Source: Bacteroidales bacterium (GTDB lineage Bacteria; Bacteroidota; Bacteroidia; Bacteroidales; Marinilabiliaceae). From it: a DNA stretch of 64,000 nucleotides. Where the stretch lies: contig JAKSLH010000007.1 of NCBI GenBank assembly GCA_024401335.1, positions 44,571-108,570 on the forward strand, given 5' to 3'. The notes under the pieces were generated by a model, which was given only the letters and a program-made list of their open reading frames with translations, was not told the DNA's origin and did not search any database. The translations under genes were made by a program, and so were the position numbers. Shown here piece after piece: positions 20,480 to 24,752 of the stretch; position 1 is the first letter of the stretch; every line of letters starts with the position of its first letter.

Positions 20480-20938
20480 ATGAAAAGACTTATATTGATA
20501 TTGACGGTGCTCCTTTGGGCAGGGTTGTCTATGGCGCAGCAGAAGGCTGCATTGTATGCTACCGAAAGCAGTGATGCCAACTTGGCTAATGTGGTCAACA
20601 GCCATATATTGAAGAATCTCAACTTCGACGGCACATATAAGGTTGTGGAACGTACGGAGCAGATATTGAAGATGCTCAACAAAGAGCATGAGTATCAGCG
20701 AAGCGGAGCTGTTGACGACGAGCAGATAGCGGCACTAGGTAAGCAGCTTGGTGTAGATGTTGTTGTAGTAGTTGACGTAGCCTCATTAGGCGAAGAGGCA
20801 TTTGTCAGTGCAAAGATAATCAATGTCACTACAGGCGAGATTGTCAGCAGTGGCAGCGAAGGTATGGAAAAAATTGGTTTTGCTGCAGCAAAAGAGGCAG
20901 CGGAGAAAGTGTCGAAGCAATTATTATTCCTGGATTAA
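20480..20938 (+). CDS. Small secreted CsgG/LpoB-like protein
   Basis: 152 residues with a signal peptide (cleavage after SMA near residue 19). The mature part is one CsgG-like unit: strand-forming KAALYAT, YKVVERTEQILKMLNKEHE, then YQRSGAVDDEQIAALGKQLG, VDVVVVVDVASLG, and FVSAKIINVTTGEIVSSGS. The same plan forms the N-terminal domains of the next three proteins, so this is the stand-alone version. CsgG builds an outer-membrane secretion pore and LpoB activates penicillin-binding proteins; neither role can be assumed here because the lipobox is missing. Confidence 0.75.
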   Translation: MKRLILILTVLLWAGLSMAQQKAALYATESSDANLANVVNSHILKNLNFDGTYKVVERTEQILKMLNKEHEYQRSGAVDDEQIAALGKQLGVDVVVVVDVASLGEEAFVSAKIINVTTGEIVSSGSEGMEKIGFAAAKEAAEKVSKQLLFLD

Positions 20939-20952
20939 AAAGCATTAGTTAT

Positions 20953-22092
20953 ATGAGACAAATATTGATGTTGTTGTTGATATGTTTGACAATGTCGACA
21001 ACGGTTGTATTAGCGCAGAACAAAAAGGTTGCATTGCTAGAACCTCGTGTTGGTGAAGGCTCATCTGCTATTTCTGGTCTTGAGAAAGCTATGATACGAG
21101 GTGAGTTACGTAAGGCTATAGTTAATCATACGGGGTATGAAGCTTTTACTCGTACAGATGTTGACCAAATGATGCAAGAGCAAGGTTTTCAGCGTACAGG
21201 TATGGTGGAAGATTCACAAGTAAAACGTTTGGGCGAGATGTGTGGTGCCGACTATATATGCGTATCGACACTCAATAAATCTAATTCTGAATTTTATATA
21301 GAAGCGTACTTGATAAATGTCGAAACTGCTGCAATTTCTAATCCAGCATCGCAATTCGGAGAGCTTGTAGATGGCAAATTGTCAAATATGCTGCCTGTAT
21401 GCCAAGCACTTGCCCAAGAGCTTTTGGGTACGTATTCTCCTATTGTTAATCAAAAAACTTCGGTAAGTCTGAAACAAGAATCAGCTCAAGTTTCTTCGTC
21501 TAAAAAACAAGCGCAACAAGAGGAACAGGCTCAACCTGTCCGTCAGTCAAGTCCCCAAAACGAGACAACTGTTGGAAGTTTATATACCTTTTCTGATGGA
21601 ACAAAAGGTATTGTGTTCTTTTGTAATTCAGATGGACACGGATTAGTCGTGTCTTTAGACGAAGATATCATGCAATGGGATTCGCACACTAAAAATAGAC
21701 AAGTAGTTGACATAACAAGTATTCCAAATGTTGATGACATTGGTAAGTACATGGTTATGGGGAAAGGGAAAGAGTATACTGAGGCCATTTTAAGTCAGAA
21801 TGCAGGTTTTTGTCCTGCTGCAACATGGTGCGCGAAGCATGGAGCAGGATGGTATTTGCCTAGTGGAGAAGAAATGGGTTACTTGCTCCGAGATGCAAAC
21901 AATACAGCCCGAAAGCACGGTGAAATCAGTAGAGCACTGTTGAAACATGGCGGTGTTCCTCTAGACGGCAGTTGGTATTGGTGTAGCTCTGAAAATGAAA
22001 AAAGCGAAGCTTTCAATATCAGTTCGTCGGGACGCTCGTCTTCTGAGGAAAAGATTACGCCATTGCCTGTACGAGCTATTCGTTCATTTTGA
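20953..22092 (+). CDS. CsgG-like domain fused to a DUF1566/Lcl-like lectin-fold domain
   Basis: 379 residues with signal peptide (MRQILMLLLICLTMSTT). Residues about 22-160 are a CsgG-like domain close to those of the next two genes (KVALLEPRVGEG, FTRTDVDQMMQEQGFQRTGMV). A Gln/Ser-rich linker follows at about 170-205. The C-terminal domain (from GSLYTFSDGTKGIVFF) has the marks of the DUF1566/Lcl family: WCAKHGAGWYLPSGEEM, WYWCSSE and the closing PVRAIRSF. That family adopts a C-type-lectin-like fold also used in DGR targets. Its last 30 codons are not enriched in NNC codons, so I see no adenine-mutagenesis mark here. Confidence 0.78.
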   Translation: MRQILMLLLICLTMSTTVVLAQNKKVALLEPRVGEGSSAISGLEKAMIRGELRKAIVNHTGYEAFTRTDVDQMMQEQGFQRTGMVEDSQVKRLGEMCGADYICVSTLNKSNSEFYIEAYLINVETAAISNPASQFGELVDGKLSNMLPVCQALAQELLGTYSPIVNQKTSVSLKQESAQVSSSKKQAQQEEQAQPVRQSSPQNETTVGSLYTFSDGTKGIVFFCNSDGHGLVVSLDEDIMQWDSHTKNRQVVDITSIPNVDDIGKYMVMGKGKEYTEAILSQNAGFCPAATWCAKHGAGWYLPSGEEMGYLLRDANNTARKHGEISRALLKHGGVPLDGSWYWCSSENEKSEAFNISSSGRSSSEEKITPLPVRAIRSF

Positions 22093-22111: not shown

Positions 22112-23377
22112 ATGAAATCGATATTGATGCTATTGTTTTTGTGTCTGACAATGTCGACAACGACGTTAGCGCAAAAAAAGACAATTGCATTGTTGGAACC
22201 ACGTGGAGGTGAGGGCTCTACGGCAATTACAGGAATGGATAAAGCTATAGTACGAGGTGAGCTTCGCAAAGGCATTCAAAAACTTGATGGTTTTACAACC
22301 GTTACGCGCACAGATATAGACCAAATGATGAAGGAGCAAAATTTCCAGCGTACAGGTATGGTAAGCGACGAACAGATAAAAAAATTGGGCGAAATGGCTG
22401 GCGCCGATTACATTTGTGTTTCAACAATAAATAAATCGCAGACTCAATTCTATTTAGAGGCCTACCTTATTGAGTTGGAAACAGGTGAAATCTCTAATCC
22501 TGCAACGCAATATGGAGAGATGGTCAATGGCAAATTCTCGGATTTGTTGACAATATGTGAGAATTTGGCCCAAGAATTGTGCGGTATTACGCCTTCTAGA
22601 CACTCGAACAACAGACAAAACAATTCAAGACGAAGTGCCACAGGTCAGGCCTACACCGAAACAGAGCTAGGTCTTGACCTTAAGATGGTGTATGTGGAGG
22701 GCGGCTCATTCCTTATGGGCTGCACCAGCGAGCAGTCGGATTGCAGTAGTAATGAGAAAAATGTAAGAAGAGTCACTCTGGACGGCTACTACATAGGCAT
22801 GTTTGAGATAACGCAGAAGCAGTGGGAGCTTGTGATGGGGACATCGATATATCAGCAACAGACAAAGGCTGGCCTCTCTCAACTGTATGGTGTTGGTCCG
22901 GACTATCCTATGTATTATGTATCGTGGGAAGAGGCAATGACGTTCTGTCAGGAATTAAGCCGCCTTACAGGCAAGACGTACACATTGCCGACAGAAGCAC
23001 AGTGGGAGTATGCAGCACGCGGCGGCAACCGCAATGACGGCACGAAGTACAGCGGCAGTCATAGTGCAGATCTGGTAGCATGGTATGACAGCAACAGCGG
23101 TAACAGCACACACATAGTAGGCGCAAAGCGAGCCAATGGCTTGGGAATCTACGACATGAGTGGCAACGTATGGGAATGGTGCAAAGACTGGTATGCAGAC
23201 AGCTATCAGAGCTATCAGACGAACAATCCGGAAGGTCCTAGCAGTGGGTCTTACCGCGTGACCCGTGGCGGCGGCTGGCTCCTCAGCGCAAGTGTCTGCC
23301 GCGTTGCGTTCCGCTACAACAACACGCCAACGAACCGCAACGGCCTCCTTGGTTTCCGTGTTGTCCTTATTCCCTAG
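22112..23377 (+). CDS. CsgG-like domain fused to an FGE-type lectin-fold domain with a putative DGR variable region
   Basis: 421 residues. After the signal peptide, residues about 20-155 form a CsgG-like domain (KKTIALLEPRGGEGSTAITG, RTDIDQMMKEQNFQRTGMVS). A short Asn/Ser/Arg linker leads to a formylglycine-generating-enzyme-like (FGE-sulfatase) domain from about residue 180: LDLKMVYVEGGSFLMG, WELVMGTS, LPTEAQWEYAARGG, GIYDMSGNVWEWCKDW, and the final RGGGW to GFRVV stretch. This C-type-lectin-like fold is a common DGR target. The last 42 residues hold the variable region described separately. Nearly identical to its downstream neighbour except at that end. Likely a displayed or secreted binding protein; no catalytic role is claimed. 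Confidence 0.82.
   Translation: MKSILMLLFLCLTMSTTTLAQKKTIALLEPRGGEGSTAITGMDKAIVRGELRKGIQKLDGFTTVTRTDIDQMMKEQNFQRTGMVSDEQIKKLGEMAGADYICVSTINKSQTQFYLEAYLIELETGEISNPATQYGEMVNGKFSDLLTICENLAQELCGITPSRHSNNRQNNSRRSATGQAYTETELGLDLKMVYVEGGSFLMGCTSEQSDCSSNEKNVRRVTLDGYYIGMFEITQKQWELVMGTSIYQQQTKAGLSQLYGVGPDYPMYYVSWEEAMTFCQELSRLTGKTYTLPTEAQWEYAARGGNRNDGTKYSGSHSADLVAWYDSNSGNSTHIVGAKRANGLGIYDMSGNVWEWCKDWYADSYQSYQTNNPEGPSSGSYRVTRGGGWLLSASVCRVAFRYNNTPTNRNGLLGFRVVLIP
23153..23251 (+). repeat. Near-identical 99-bp block, copy 1
   Basis: From GACATGAGTGG to the TCT before the variable region, this block is identical to 24480-24578 except at one base (TAT versus TGT codon). The sequence just upstream in the two genes differs at many synonymous sites. 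The step change suggests recent copying or gene conversion of this 3' cassette. Confidence 0.8.
23252..23347 (+). repeat. Putative DGR variable region, copy 1
   Basis: 32 codons compared with 24579-24674. Sixteen differ in amino acid. Fifteen of these are NNC in both copies and are explained by an AAC or AGC template codon; the last (GCG versus TCG) is explained by ACG. The frame motif is RGG-x-W, A-S-x-C-R-V, R, T-P-T, R, L-G-F-R-V-V, as in DGR-diversified FGE proteins. A few C/T synonymous differences are not explained by adenine mutagenesis from one template. Confidence 0.75.
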
Positions 23378-23391
23378 TTCAGGCAGTTTGG

Positions 23392-23404
23392 CAGAACCAT
23401 TCTG
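23392..23404 (+). other. Small hairpin just after the variable region (copy 1)
   Basis: CAGAA / TTCTG with a 3-base loop, 15 bases after the stop codon, followed by TTTGAGCAAA. A comparable hairpin follows the second copy. DGR targets often have a hairpin or cruciform after the variable region. Short stem, so modest confidence. Confidence 0.35.
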
Positions 23405-23438
23405 TTTGAGCAAACAAGATTAATAAAACGTACGTAAT

Positions 23439-24704
23439 ATGAAATCGATATTGATGATGTTAACGTTGTTCTTGGCAATGTCGACAGCGACGTTAGCACA
23501 AAAAAAGACAATTGCCTTGTTGGAACCACGTGGAGGTGAGGGCTCTACGGCAATTACAGGAATGGACAAAGCTATAGTACGAGGTGAGCTTCGCAAAGGC
23601 ATCCAAAAACTTGATGGTTTTACTACCGTTACGCGCACAGATATAGACCAAATGATGAAGGAGCAAAATTTCCAGCGTACAGGTATGGTAAGCGACGAAC
23701 AGATAAAAAAATTGGGCGAAATGGCTGGCGCCGATTACATTTGTGTTTCAACAATCAACAAGTCGCAGTCTGAATTCTATTTAGAGGCCTACCTTATTGA
23801 GTTGGAAACAGGCGAAATCTCTAATCCTGCAACGCAATATGGTGAGATGGTCAATGGTAAATTCTCGGATTTGTTGACAATTTGTGAGGAATTGGCCCAA
23901 GAATTGTGCAATGCTACACCTTCGAGACACTCAAACAACAGACAAAACAATACAAGGCAAAGCGTCTCTGGTCAGAACTATACCGAGACAGAACTTGGTC
24001 TTGACCTTAAGATGGTGTATGTAGAGGGCGGTTCATTCCTTATGGGCTGCACCAGTGAGCAGTCGGACTGTGCAAGTGATGAACAAAATGTAAGAAGAGT
24101 CACACTTGACGGCTACTACATCGGCATGTTTGAGATAACGCAGAAGCAATGGGAACTTGTTATGGGAACATCGATAAATCAGCAAAAGTCAAAGGCTGGA
24201 AAATCTTTACTTAAAGGTGTTGGTCCGGACTATCCTATGTATTACGTATCATGGGAAGATGCTATGACCTTCTGCCAGGAGCTAAGCCGACTTACAGGTA
24301 AGACATATACATTACCGACAGAAGCCCAGTGGGAATTTGCAGCTCGCGGGGGTAATCGCAACGACGGCACGAAATACAGTGGTAGCCACAGTATCGATTT
24401 GGCTGCATGGTATTTCTACAACAGCGGTGGAGGTACACACTTAGTTGGCACGAAGCGTGCGAATGGCTTGGGGATATATGACATGAGTGGCAACGTATGG
24501 GAATGGTGCAAAGACTGGTATGCAGACAGCTATCAGAGCTGTCAGACGAACAATCCGGAAGGTCCTAGCAGTGGGTCTGACCGCGTGAACCGTGGCGGCT
24601 GCTGGGGCTTCAACGCGAGTCGCTGTCGTGTTTCGCACCGCGACGGCATCACGCCTACGAGCCGCAGCATCTTCCTTGGCTTCCGTGTTGTTCTTATCCC
24701 CTAG
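23439..24704 (+). CDS. Tandem paralogue: CsgG-like domain plus FGE-type domain with a putative DGR variable region
   Basis: 421 residues, the same length and plan as its upstream neighbour: signal peptide, CsgG-like domain (about 20-155), Asn/Gln/Arg linker, FGE-sulfatase-like domain from about 180. The N-terminal domains of the pair are almost identical in DNA, the first part of the FGE domain is clearly more diverged, a 99-bp block is nearly identical, and the last 32 codons differ at half of the positions. Here the terminal motif reads RGGCW ... LGFRVV. The gene is preceded by a 61-base spacer and followed by a long region without intact genes. Probably a secreted or surface ligand-binding protein. 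Confidence 0.82.
   Translation: MKSILMMLTLFLAMSTATLAQKKTIALLEPRGGEGSTAITGMDKAIVRGELRKGIQKLDGFTTVTRTDIDQMMKEQNFQRTGMVSDEQIKKLGEMAGADYICVSTINKSQSEFYLEAYLIELETGEISNPATQYGEMVNGKFSDLLTICEELAQELCNATPSRHSNNRQNNTRQSVSGQNYTETELGLDLKMVYVEGGSFLMGCTSEQSDCASDEQNVRRVTLDGYYIGMFEITQKQWELVMGTSINQQKSKAGKSLLKGVGPDYPMYYVSWEDAMTFCQELSRLTGKTYTLPTEAQWEFAARGGNRNDGTKYSGSHSIDLAAWYFYNSGGGTHLVGTKRANGLGIYDMSGNVWEWCKDWYADSYQSCQTNNPEGPSSGSDRVNRGGCWGFNASRCRVSHRDGITPTSRSIFLGFRVVLIP
24480..24578 (+). repeat. Near-identical 99-bp block, copy 2
   Basis: Partner of 23153-23251, with one base difference. Marks the constant part of the 3' cassette next to the variable region. Confidence 0.8.
24579..24674 (+). repeat. Putative DGR variable region, copy 2
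   Basis: Partner of 23252-23347. Residues at the variable codons are D, N, C, G, F, N, R, S, H, D, G, I, S, S, I, F, against Y, T, G, L, L, S, V, A, F, Y, N, N, N, N, G, L in copy 1. The fixed residues between them are the same in both. Confidence 0.75.
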
Positions 24705-24712
24705 TTCAGACT

Positions 24713-24735
24713 AAACGGGCAGCATCATCCTGTTT
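24713..24735 (+). other. Small hairpin just after the variable region (copy 2)
   Basis: AAACGGG / CCTGTTT with one G-T pair and a 9-base loop, 9 bases after the stop, then GAGCAAAAAAAG. The same CTGTTTGAGCAAA follows copy 1, so this 3' flank was duplicated with the gene. It could act as a weak terminator or as a DGR homing hairpin. Confidence 0.4.
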
Positions 24736-24752
24736 GAGCAAAAAAAGAAATT

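What the first reader, a model, noticed from the sequence alone, without database searches (positions are those of the whole stretch)
23252..24674. Two tandem genes end in putative DGR variable regions
In the last 32 variable codons of the genes at 22112-23377 and 23439-24704, 16 codons differ in amino acid. Fifteen are NNC in both and fit an AAC or AGC template with changes only at adenines. The sixteenth, GCG/TCG, fits ACG. Fixed residues between them spell the FGE-type C-type-lectin frame (RGG-x-W ... L-G-F-R-V-V) known from diversity-generating retroelement targets. Against a single recent template: some C/T synonymous differences in the same stretch, which imply two templates or later drift. 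No reverse transcriptase, Avd-like gene or template repeat is in the window.
Basis: partly seen in the sequence, partly recalled or inferred. Interest (0 to 1): 0.88.

Follow-up and report, generated by a model that had tools for sequence, protein, structure and literature searches.

The report
Hypervariable gene ends, mutating machinery missing
Two neighbouring bacterial genes end in stretches that carry the fingerprint of a known self-mutating system (a diversity-generating retroelement), but the enzyme and template that would write them are not in this incomplete genome assembly, so they are either leftovers or served from an unseen place.

Summary
In detail: the genes at 22112-23377 and 23439-24704 differ at 16 amino acids in codons 381-412, 15 of them NNC in both copies, against 4 of 35 outside. 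Natural FGE-type templates, found by template/variable-region scan in other genomes without using their Asn pattern, predict the changed bases: 20 of 30 template-adenine sites differ between the two genes against 5 of 66 other sites. The best PDB match is the Treponema denticola DGR variable protein. Two intact DGRs elsewhere target genes of the same LpoB/CsgG-like plus FGE architecture. No DGR-type reverse transcriptase and no template was found in the host assembly, which is 84.6% complete; its one RT hit is Drt4-like. No strain data were available, so present activity is unproven. The sixteenth codon (GCG/TCG) is better read as a difference between two templates than as an adenine site. FGE targets without RT or template are already reported in T. 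denticola (PMC4891356). Verdict: real; a new member of a known kind; moderate interest.

The parts
22112..23377 (+). Target gene 1: LpoB/CsgG-like module (about codons 20-180) plus FGE domain (residues 191-418)
   Evidence: Pfam FGE-sulfatase 176.2 bits, LpoB 26.0 bits (cut-off 22.3)
23439..24704 (+). Target gene 2, tandem paralogue, 88% identical protein
   Evidence: Pfam FGE-sulfatase 165.6 bits, LpoB 26.2 bits
23252..23347 (+). Variable region 1 (codons 381-412)
24579..24674 (+). Variable region 2 (codons 381-412)
23153..23287 (+). Codons 348-392 of gene 1: tract with 0 silent differences from gene 2 in 45 codons, against 50 of 167 in codons 181-347
24480..24614 (+). The same tract in gene 2
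20953..22092 (+). Upstream gene with the same N-terminal module (61% over 181 aa) and a C-terminus only weakly like Lcl_C (18.2 bits, cut-off 34.9); its end does not look NNC-restricted (by eye)
20480..20938 (+). Upstream 152-aa gene, the N-terminal module alone (28% over 132 aa to gene 1; Pfam CsgG 26.6 bits, cut-off 20.8)

Best explanation
The two genes are target (variable-protein) genes of a diversity-generating retroelement. Their last ~32 codons were written by reverse-transcribing a template RNA with errors at template adenines and pasting the cDNA into the C-type-lectin (FGE) end of a probably secreted LpoB/CsgG-like protein, so that surface residues change while the scaffold stays. 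The machinery is not in this assembly. I think it more likely (about 2 to 1) that it was lost fairly recently and left these genes behind than that it lies in the missing ~15% or on an unseen element and acts in trans. Shown: the pattern, its fit to natural templates, the architecture shared with intact DGR targets, absence of RT and template from the assembly. Inferred: the mutagenic homing itself, two templates rather than one, secretion, a binding role, and the 2-to-1 odds.
For: 0 of 16 changed codons alter the third base, 15 of 16 NNC/NNC. A template from another genus of the same family (L110), found through its RT, predicts 18 of 19 changed first/second positions (p = 8.8e-7). Twelve template/variable-region pairs found by scan alone, in 11 of 46 loci plus one A-rich artefact that stayed in the count, give 20 of 30 adenine sites changed against 5 of 66 others (p = 3.7e-9). 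Best PDB match 2y3c, T. denticola variable protein, E = 8e-36, in register to the end. Intact DGRs L183 and L190 target the same two-module architecture. Amino-acid changes at six template sites lie inside a tract with no silent difference, so mutagenesis is younger than the homogenisation.
Against: No DGR-type RT and no template found in the assembly; no DGR RT in 15 genomes of the genus and in only 2 of 71 of the family at E<=1e-15. C/T silent differences at codons 396 and 397 and GCG/TCG at 399 do not fit one template. The NNC score alone does not predict an RT in other genomes: 5 of 17 high-scoring against 5 of 17 others (my tally). No strain or read data.
Confidence: 0.88

Rival explanations
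1. Ordinary FGE-domain paralogues whose exposed loop residues diverged by point mutation under selection; no retroelement was ever involved.
For: FGE ends without NNC restriction in other genomes also vary at these columns; no RT or template in the assembly.
Against: Point mutation does not spare the third base in 16 of 16 codons while 4 of 16 neighbouring fixed codons carry silent changes, nor pick template-adenine sites of other genomes (p = 3.7e-9). Among 54 gap-free FGE ends the two window copies have the highest NNC score (13 of 13).
Confidence: 0.05
2. The DGR is present and active now, in the unassembled ~15% of the genome or on a plasmid or prophage, and acts on these genes in trans.
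For: The assembly is 84.6% complete. Template-site changes sit in a tract with 0 silent differences in 45 codons, and 15 of 15 adenine-type codons keep C at the third base in both copies. Targets at incomplete loci are diversified in Thiohalocapsa, for which action in trans was considered (PMC10907252, passages). An FGE-type DGR lies on viral contig L113.
Against: No RT or template found in the 85% that is held; none in 15 genus genomes. Recency is only relative to the divergence of the two copies.
Confidence: 0.3
3. Ready-made variable ends are shuffled among tandem paralogues by gene conversion; a DGR acted only in a distant ancestor or donor.
For: Mosaic of silent differences: 0 of 45 codons in 348-392, 50 of 167 in 181-347, 7 of 29 in 393-421; the identical tract begins upstream of where natural templates keep similarity (about codon 379).
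Against: Conversion makes copies alike, yet the homogenised tract holds changes at template sites 381, 384, 388, 390, 391 and 392. No donor was found: the only third FGE match in the assembly is 38% identical over part of the domain.
Confidence: 0.1

Closest known systems
Treponema denticola DGR targets, TvpA type (PMC4891356: passages and section 11 seen; structure 2y3c)
   Same: FGE-sulfatase-like C-terminal variable region; target genes persist in isolates without RT and TR and are read there as leftovers; HRDC accessory gene in the intact systems
   Different: T. denticola targets are described as predicted lipoproteins; here there is no lipobox cysteine by eye, and the FGE domain is fused to an LpoB/CsgG-like module in a tandem array
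Intact FGE-type DGRs L183 (same family) and L190 (another family of the order), found here
   Same: Target = CsgG/LpoB/FlgO-like module plus FGE with the variable region at the end; template Asn codons fall on the window's variable codons
   Different: RT and template are next to the target (an HRDC gene was identified in L183 only); N-terminal modules are only about 30% identical to the window's
Thiohalocapsa PB-PSB1 FGE/CLec DGR targets (PMC10907252, passages seen)
   Same: FGE variable ends, incomplete or remote target loci, N-terminal domain shuffling combined with hypermutation
   Different: Those targets carry NTPase, vWA or similar conflict-system domains; Pfam finds none of these in the window genes

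Membership tests
DGR target (variable protein) gene | Differences confined to template-adenine sites | tested here: met
   20 of 30 template-A sites changed against 5 of 66 others with templates of other genomes; 18 of 19 changed first/second positions with L110 alone. Cognate template not available; the five others are 393, 396, 397, 399 and 406
DGR target (variable protein) gene | Variable region at the C-terminal end of a C-type-lectin/FGE fold | tested here: met
   Sequence match to 2y3c in register to the end; Pfam FGE-sulfatase. No structure was predicted
Complete DGR | DGR-type reverse transcriptase in the genome | tested here: not met
   None in the 84.6%-complete assembly; the only RVT_1 hit is Drt4-like, 389.5 bits, cut-off 450
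Complete DGR | Template repeat | tested here: not met
   one search finds the other copy at 79% identity and then only matches of E >= 2
Complete DGR | Accessory protein (Avd or HRDC type) | not tested
   Not searched separately in the host genome
Complete DGR | Population-level hypervariation at the variable region | not testable with these tools
   No second strain or reads of this species were reachable
Formylglycine-generating enzyme (catalytic) | Catalytic cysteine pair | not tested
   Domain similarity only

The most novel reading that the evidence does not exclude
A Bacteroidales locus in which one secreted LpoB/CsgG-like module is re-used with interchangeable C-termini (none, Lcl_C-like and FGE here; MORN repeats in relatives), where tandem FGE copies were diversified by a DGR acting from elsewhere with two cognate templates and were then mixed by gene conversion: domain swapping, conversion and templated hypermutation in one locus.
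Probability: 0.25. Interest if true: 0.62.

Novelty: new member of a known kind. Interest (0 to 1): 0.42.

Why it matters
It shows that a DGR target can be recognised without its RT or template, by aligning its variable codons to templates of other hosts. That matters because Roux et al. [quoted passage not shown] It also ties an LpoB/CsgG-like module to templated hypervariation: two intact loci and this orphan pair.

Tried and rejected
A loose all-offset TR/VR scan (and parts) gave mostly A-rich artefacts; it was replaced by a score that rewards matches at non-A bases. A first codon table lost the window genes through a filter error and was redone; that filter still drops ends without a WEW-like motif, for example that of L011.

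The 12 templates were picked with a peptide pattern that itself asks for N, S, K, D, T or H at columns 400, 402-404, 408 and 410-412, so for those columns the test is partly circular; columns 381, 384, 388, 390-392 and 395 were free. I therefore repeated it with templates found by scan only: 13 pairs in 46 loci, one of them an A-rich artefact (L189, 41 A mismatches). Nine of the 12 pattern-picked templates have a verified variable region there; L162, L164 and L182 have none in the stretch held.

Remote FGE genes in G069 and G073 as trans targets: 19 loci given, 9 rows read, two of them repeats; in G069 only L146 of the five other FGE genes was read, and it is not NNC-restricted. No link was found from RTs elsewhere in the genomes of L010, L011, L012, L024 and L069 to the FGE genes of those loci (one search repeated only L011).

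NNC enrichment as predictor of an RT failed: 5 of 17 genomes of loci with 10 or more NNC of 13, against 5 of 17 other genomes (my tally, whose E limits differ; genomes of both groups counted once as high; L020, L070, L074, L076 and L084 were not tested).

Phages: 22 records with FGE homologues, each best place under 60% identity. Viral contigs: 2 and 4 relatives. Genus: 8 of 15 genomes have an FGE homologue at E<=1e-30, at most 48% identical outside the host. Structure prediction, fold search, Rfam, plasmid and E. coli searches were not run.

Full report
What is there. The window lies in a 2.7-Mb assembly of 33 contigs, 84.6% complete. Two tandem genes, 22112-23377 and 23439-24704, encode 421-aa proteins that align without gaps and are 88% identical. 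Each has a signal-peptide-like start (by eye), a module with weak but above-cut-off similarity to LpoB (26 bits, cut-off 22.3) and a strong FGE-sulfatase domain at residues 191-418. Two genes upstream carry the same module: 20953-22092 (61% over 181 aa; C-terminus weakly Lcl_C-like, below cut-off) and 20480-20938 (28% over 132 aa, module only).

Check of the observation. In codons 381-412 (23252-23347 and 24579-24674) 16 of 32 codons are nonsynonymous, 0 of 16 change the third base and 15 of 16 are NNC in both copies. Outside, 14 of 35 nonsynonymous codons change the third base and 4 of 35 are NNC/NNC (p = 1.7e-8). Third-base C is 66% inside and 22% in codons 1-380. Among 54 FGE C-termini that passed the gap-free filter in the loci then held, the two window copies have the highest NNC score, 13 of 13. 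So the pattern is real and not a codon-usage effect of this genome.

Independent templates. The window has no template, so natural ones were sought elsewhere. L110, a DGR in another genus of the same family, was found through its RT and has its template in the C-terminal extension of the RT frame. It alone predicts 18 of 19 changed first/second positions in codons 385-412 (p = 8.8e-7). A profile of four DGR RTs matched 48 of 393 genomes of the order at E<=1e-60, the host not among them. A peptide pattern found 12 FGE-type templates in the 30 loci of that search plus six others, L110 among them. They read like GSNRVNRGGSWNNNAxNCRVANRNNNTPxNRNNNLGFR. In codons 385-412, 18 of 26 sites that are A in at least 75% of them differ between the window copies, against 5 of 58 others (p = 2.9e-8). 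With codons 381 and 384 added by reading (Asn in 11 and 8 of 12), 14 of 14 template Asn codons vary against 2 of 18 others (p = 5e-7); the two are 388 (Ser AGC/AGT in 11 of 12, first base A) and 399.

Control for circularity. That pattern asks for Asn-like residues at part of the columns, so I repeated the test with templates found only by scanning for adenine-type mismatches against an FGE gene end. This gave 13 pairs in 46 loci, of which one is an A-rich artefact. In the 12 good pairs 11-16 mismatches face A and 0-4 do not. Over codons 381-412, 20 of 30 adenine sites differ between the window copies against 5 of 66 others (p = 3.7e-9; the artefact was left in the count). Because these templates belong to other hosts, both window copies also depart from the 12-template majority at 13 and 14 of 54 non-A bases: the fit is to positions, not to a cognate template.

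Known relatives. The best PDB match is the T. denticola variable protein 2y3c, E = 8e-36, in register to the end. Among the 12 fetched regions around FGE-type DGRs (several cut by contig ends), two have targets with the same module plus FGE: L183 (same family) and L190 (another family). Their modules are 30% identical over 169 aa and 31% over 119 aa to the window's (the E-values there are for a 9-sequence database). Further verified FGE-type DGRs: viral contig L113, 17 adenine and 0 other mismatches over 127 bases, and L050. Relatives L009, L025 and L032 carry arrays of the same module with FGE, MORN, weakly Fib_succ/Lcl_C-like or other ends. The FGE pair of L025 shows the same sparing (16 nonsynonymous codons from -32 to -9, none with a third-base change, counted). 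That of L012 does not (8 of 28 differing codons change the third base).

The machinery. The only RVT_1 hit in the host is Drt4-like (389.5 bits, cut-off 450). DGR-type RT: none in the host, none in 15 genus genomes, 2 of 71 family genomes at E<=1e-15 with one RT as query. Templates: none; one search found the other gene copy at 79% identity and then only matches of E >= 2, so an assembled template of similar identity should have been seen. With about 15% of the genome missing this is informative, not final.

History of the two ends. Codons 348-392 have 0 silent differences in 45 codons against 50 of 167 in codons 181-347 (binomial 1.1e-7) and 7 of 29 in codons 393-421. Natural templates lose similarity upstream of about codon 379, so the identical upstream part is more likely gene conversion or unequal crossing-over than retrohoming. 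The seven amino-acid changes in this silent-free tract (368, 381, 384, 388, 390, 391, 392; six at template sites) must be younger than the homogenisation. Mutagenesis is therefore recent relative to the divergence of the copies (95% upper bound on the silent rate 0.064 per codon, against 0.30). Further on, C/T silent differences at 396 and 397 and GCG/TCG at 399 do not fit one template; codon 399 is Ala GCx in 8, Ser TCx in 3 and Gly in 1 of 12 natural templates, which points to two templates rather than to ACG. This is inference. Several template/target pairs in one locus occur in the Odoribacter lunatus genome (L126).

What counts against. The NNC score alone does not predict an RT: 5 of 17 against 5 of 17 genomes (tally). 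No strain comparison was possible. FGE domains without NNC restriction also vary at these positions.

Comparison with print. PMC4891356 (passages, and section 11 in full) reports that all T. denticola target genes it examined were predicted as FGE-sulfatase, that an HRDC gene lies between TR and RT, and that isolates without RT or TR keep target genes with adenine-patterned variable regions, read as leftovers. PMC10907252 (passages) reports diversification at incomplete or remote target loci and domain shuffling with hypermutation. PMC8144416 (passages) says its approach would not detect remote targets. Searches of the held library for the DGR term with CsgG or LpoB returned 0 papers each; I found no report of this module as a DGR target there. 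Verdict: orphan FGE-type DGR target pair, a new member of a known kind.

Noticed in passing
L001:865-2364 (G000:C4, about 50 kb): The host's only RVT_1 hit is a Drt4-like antiviral RT (below NCBIfam's cut-off) next to an ORF that looks like a type I restriction specificity subunit (by eye).
   Followed up: partly
L111 (G035): A second DGR in the same family, of another type: target with an Lcl_C domain, 16 adenine and 0 other mismatches over 50 bases.
   Followed up: partly
L013:10001-12000: An FGE target followed by a decayed DGR RT and a template-like stretch, a possible intermediate of DGR loss; its genome also holds other DGR RT matches.
   Followed up: partly
L126 (Odoribacter lunatus genome, G072:C35): Several template/target pairs in one DGR locus, each pair matching best with itself.
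   Followed up: no
L189:4200-8453: A 1418-aa ORF ending in an FGE variable region (13 adenine, 0 other mismatches); looks like a conflict-system protein by eye.
   Followed up: no
window 23378-23420 and 24705-24747: Just after both stop codons lies a shared CTGTTTGAGCAAA; in copy 1 it can form a 6-bp stem (TGTTTG-AG-CAAACA), broken in copy 2. Whether it has to do with homing is unknown.
   Followed up: no
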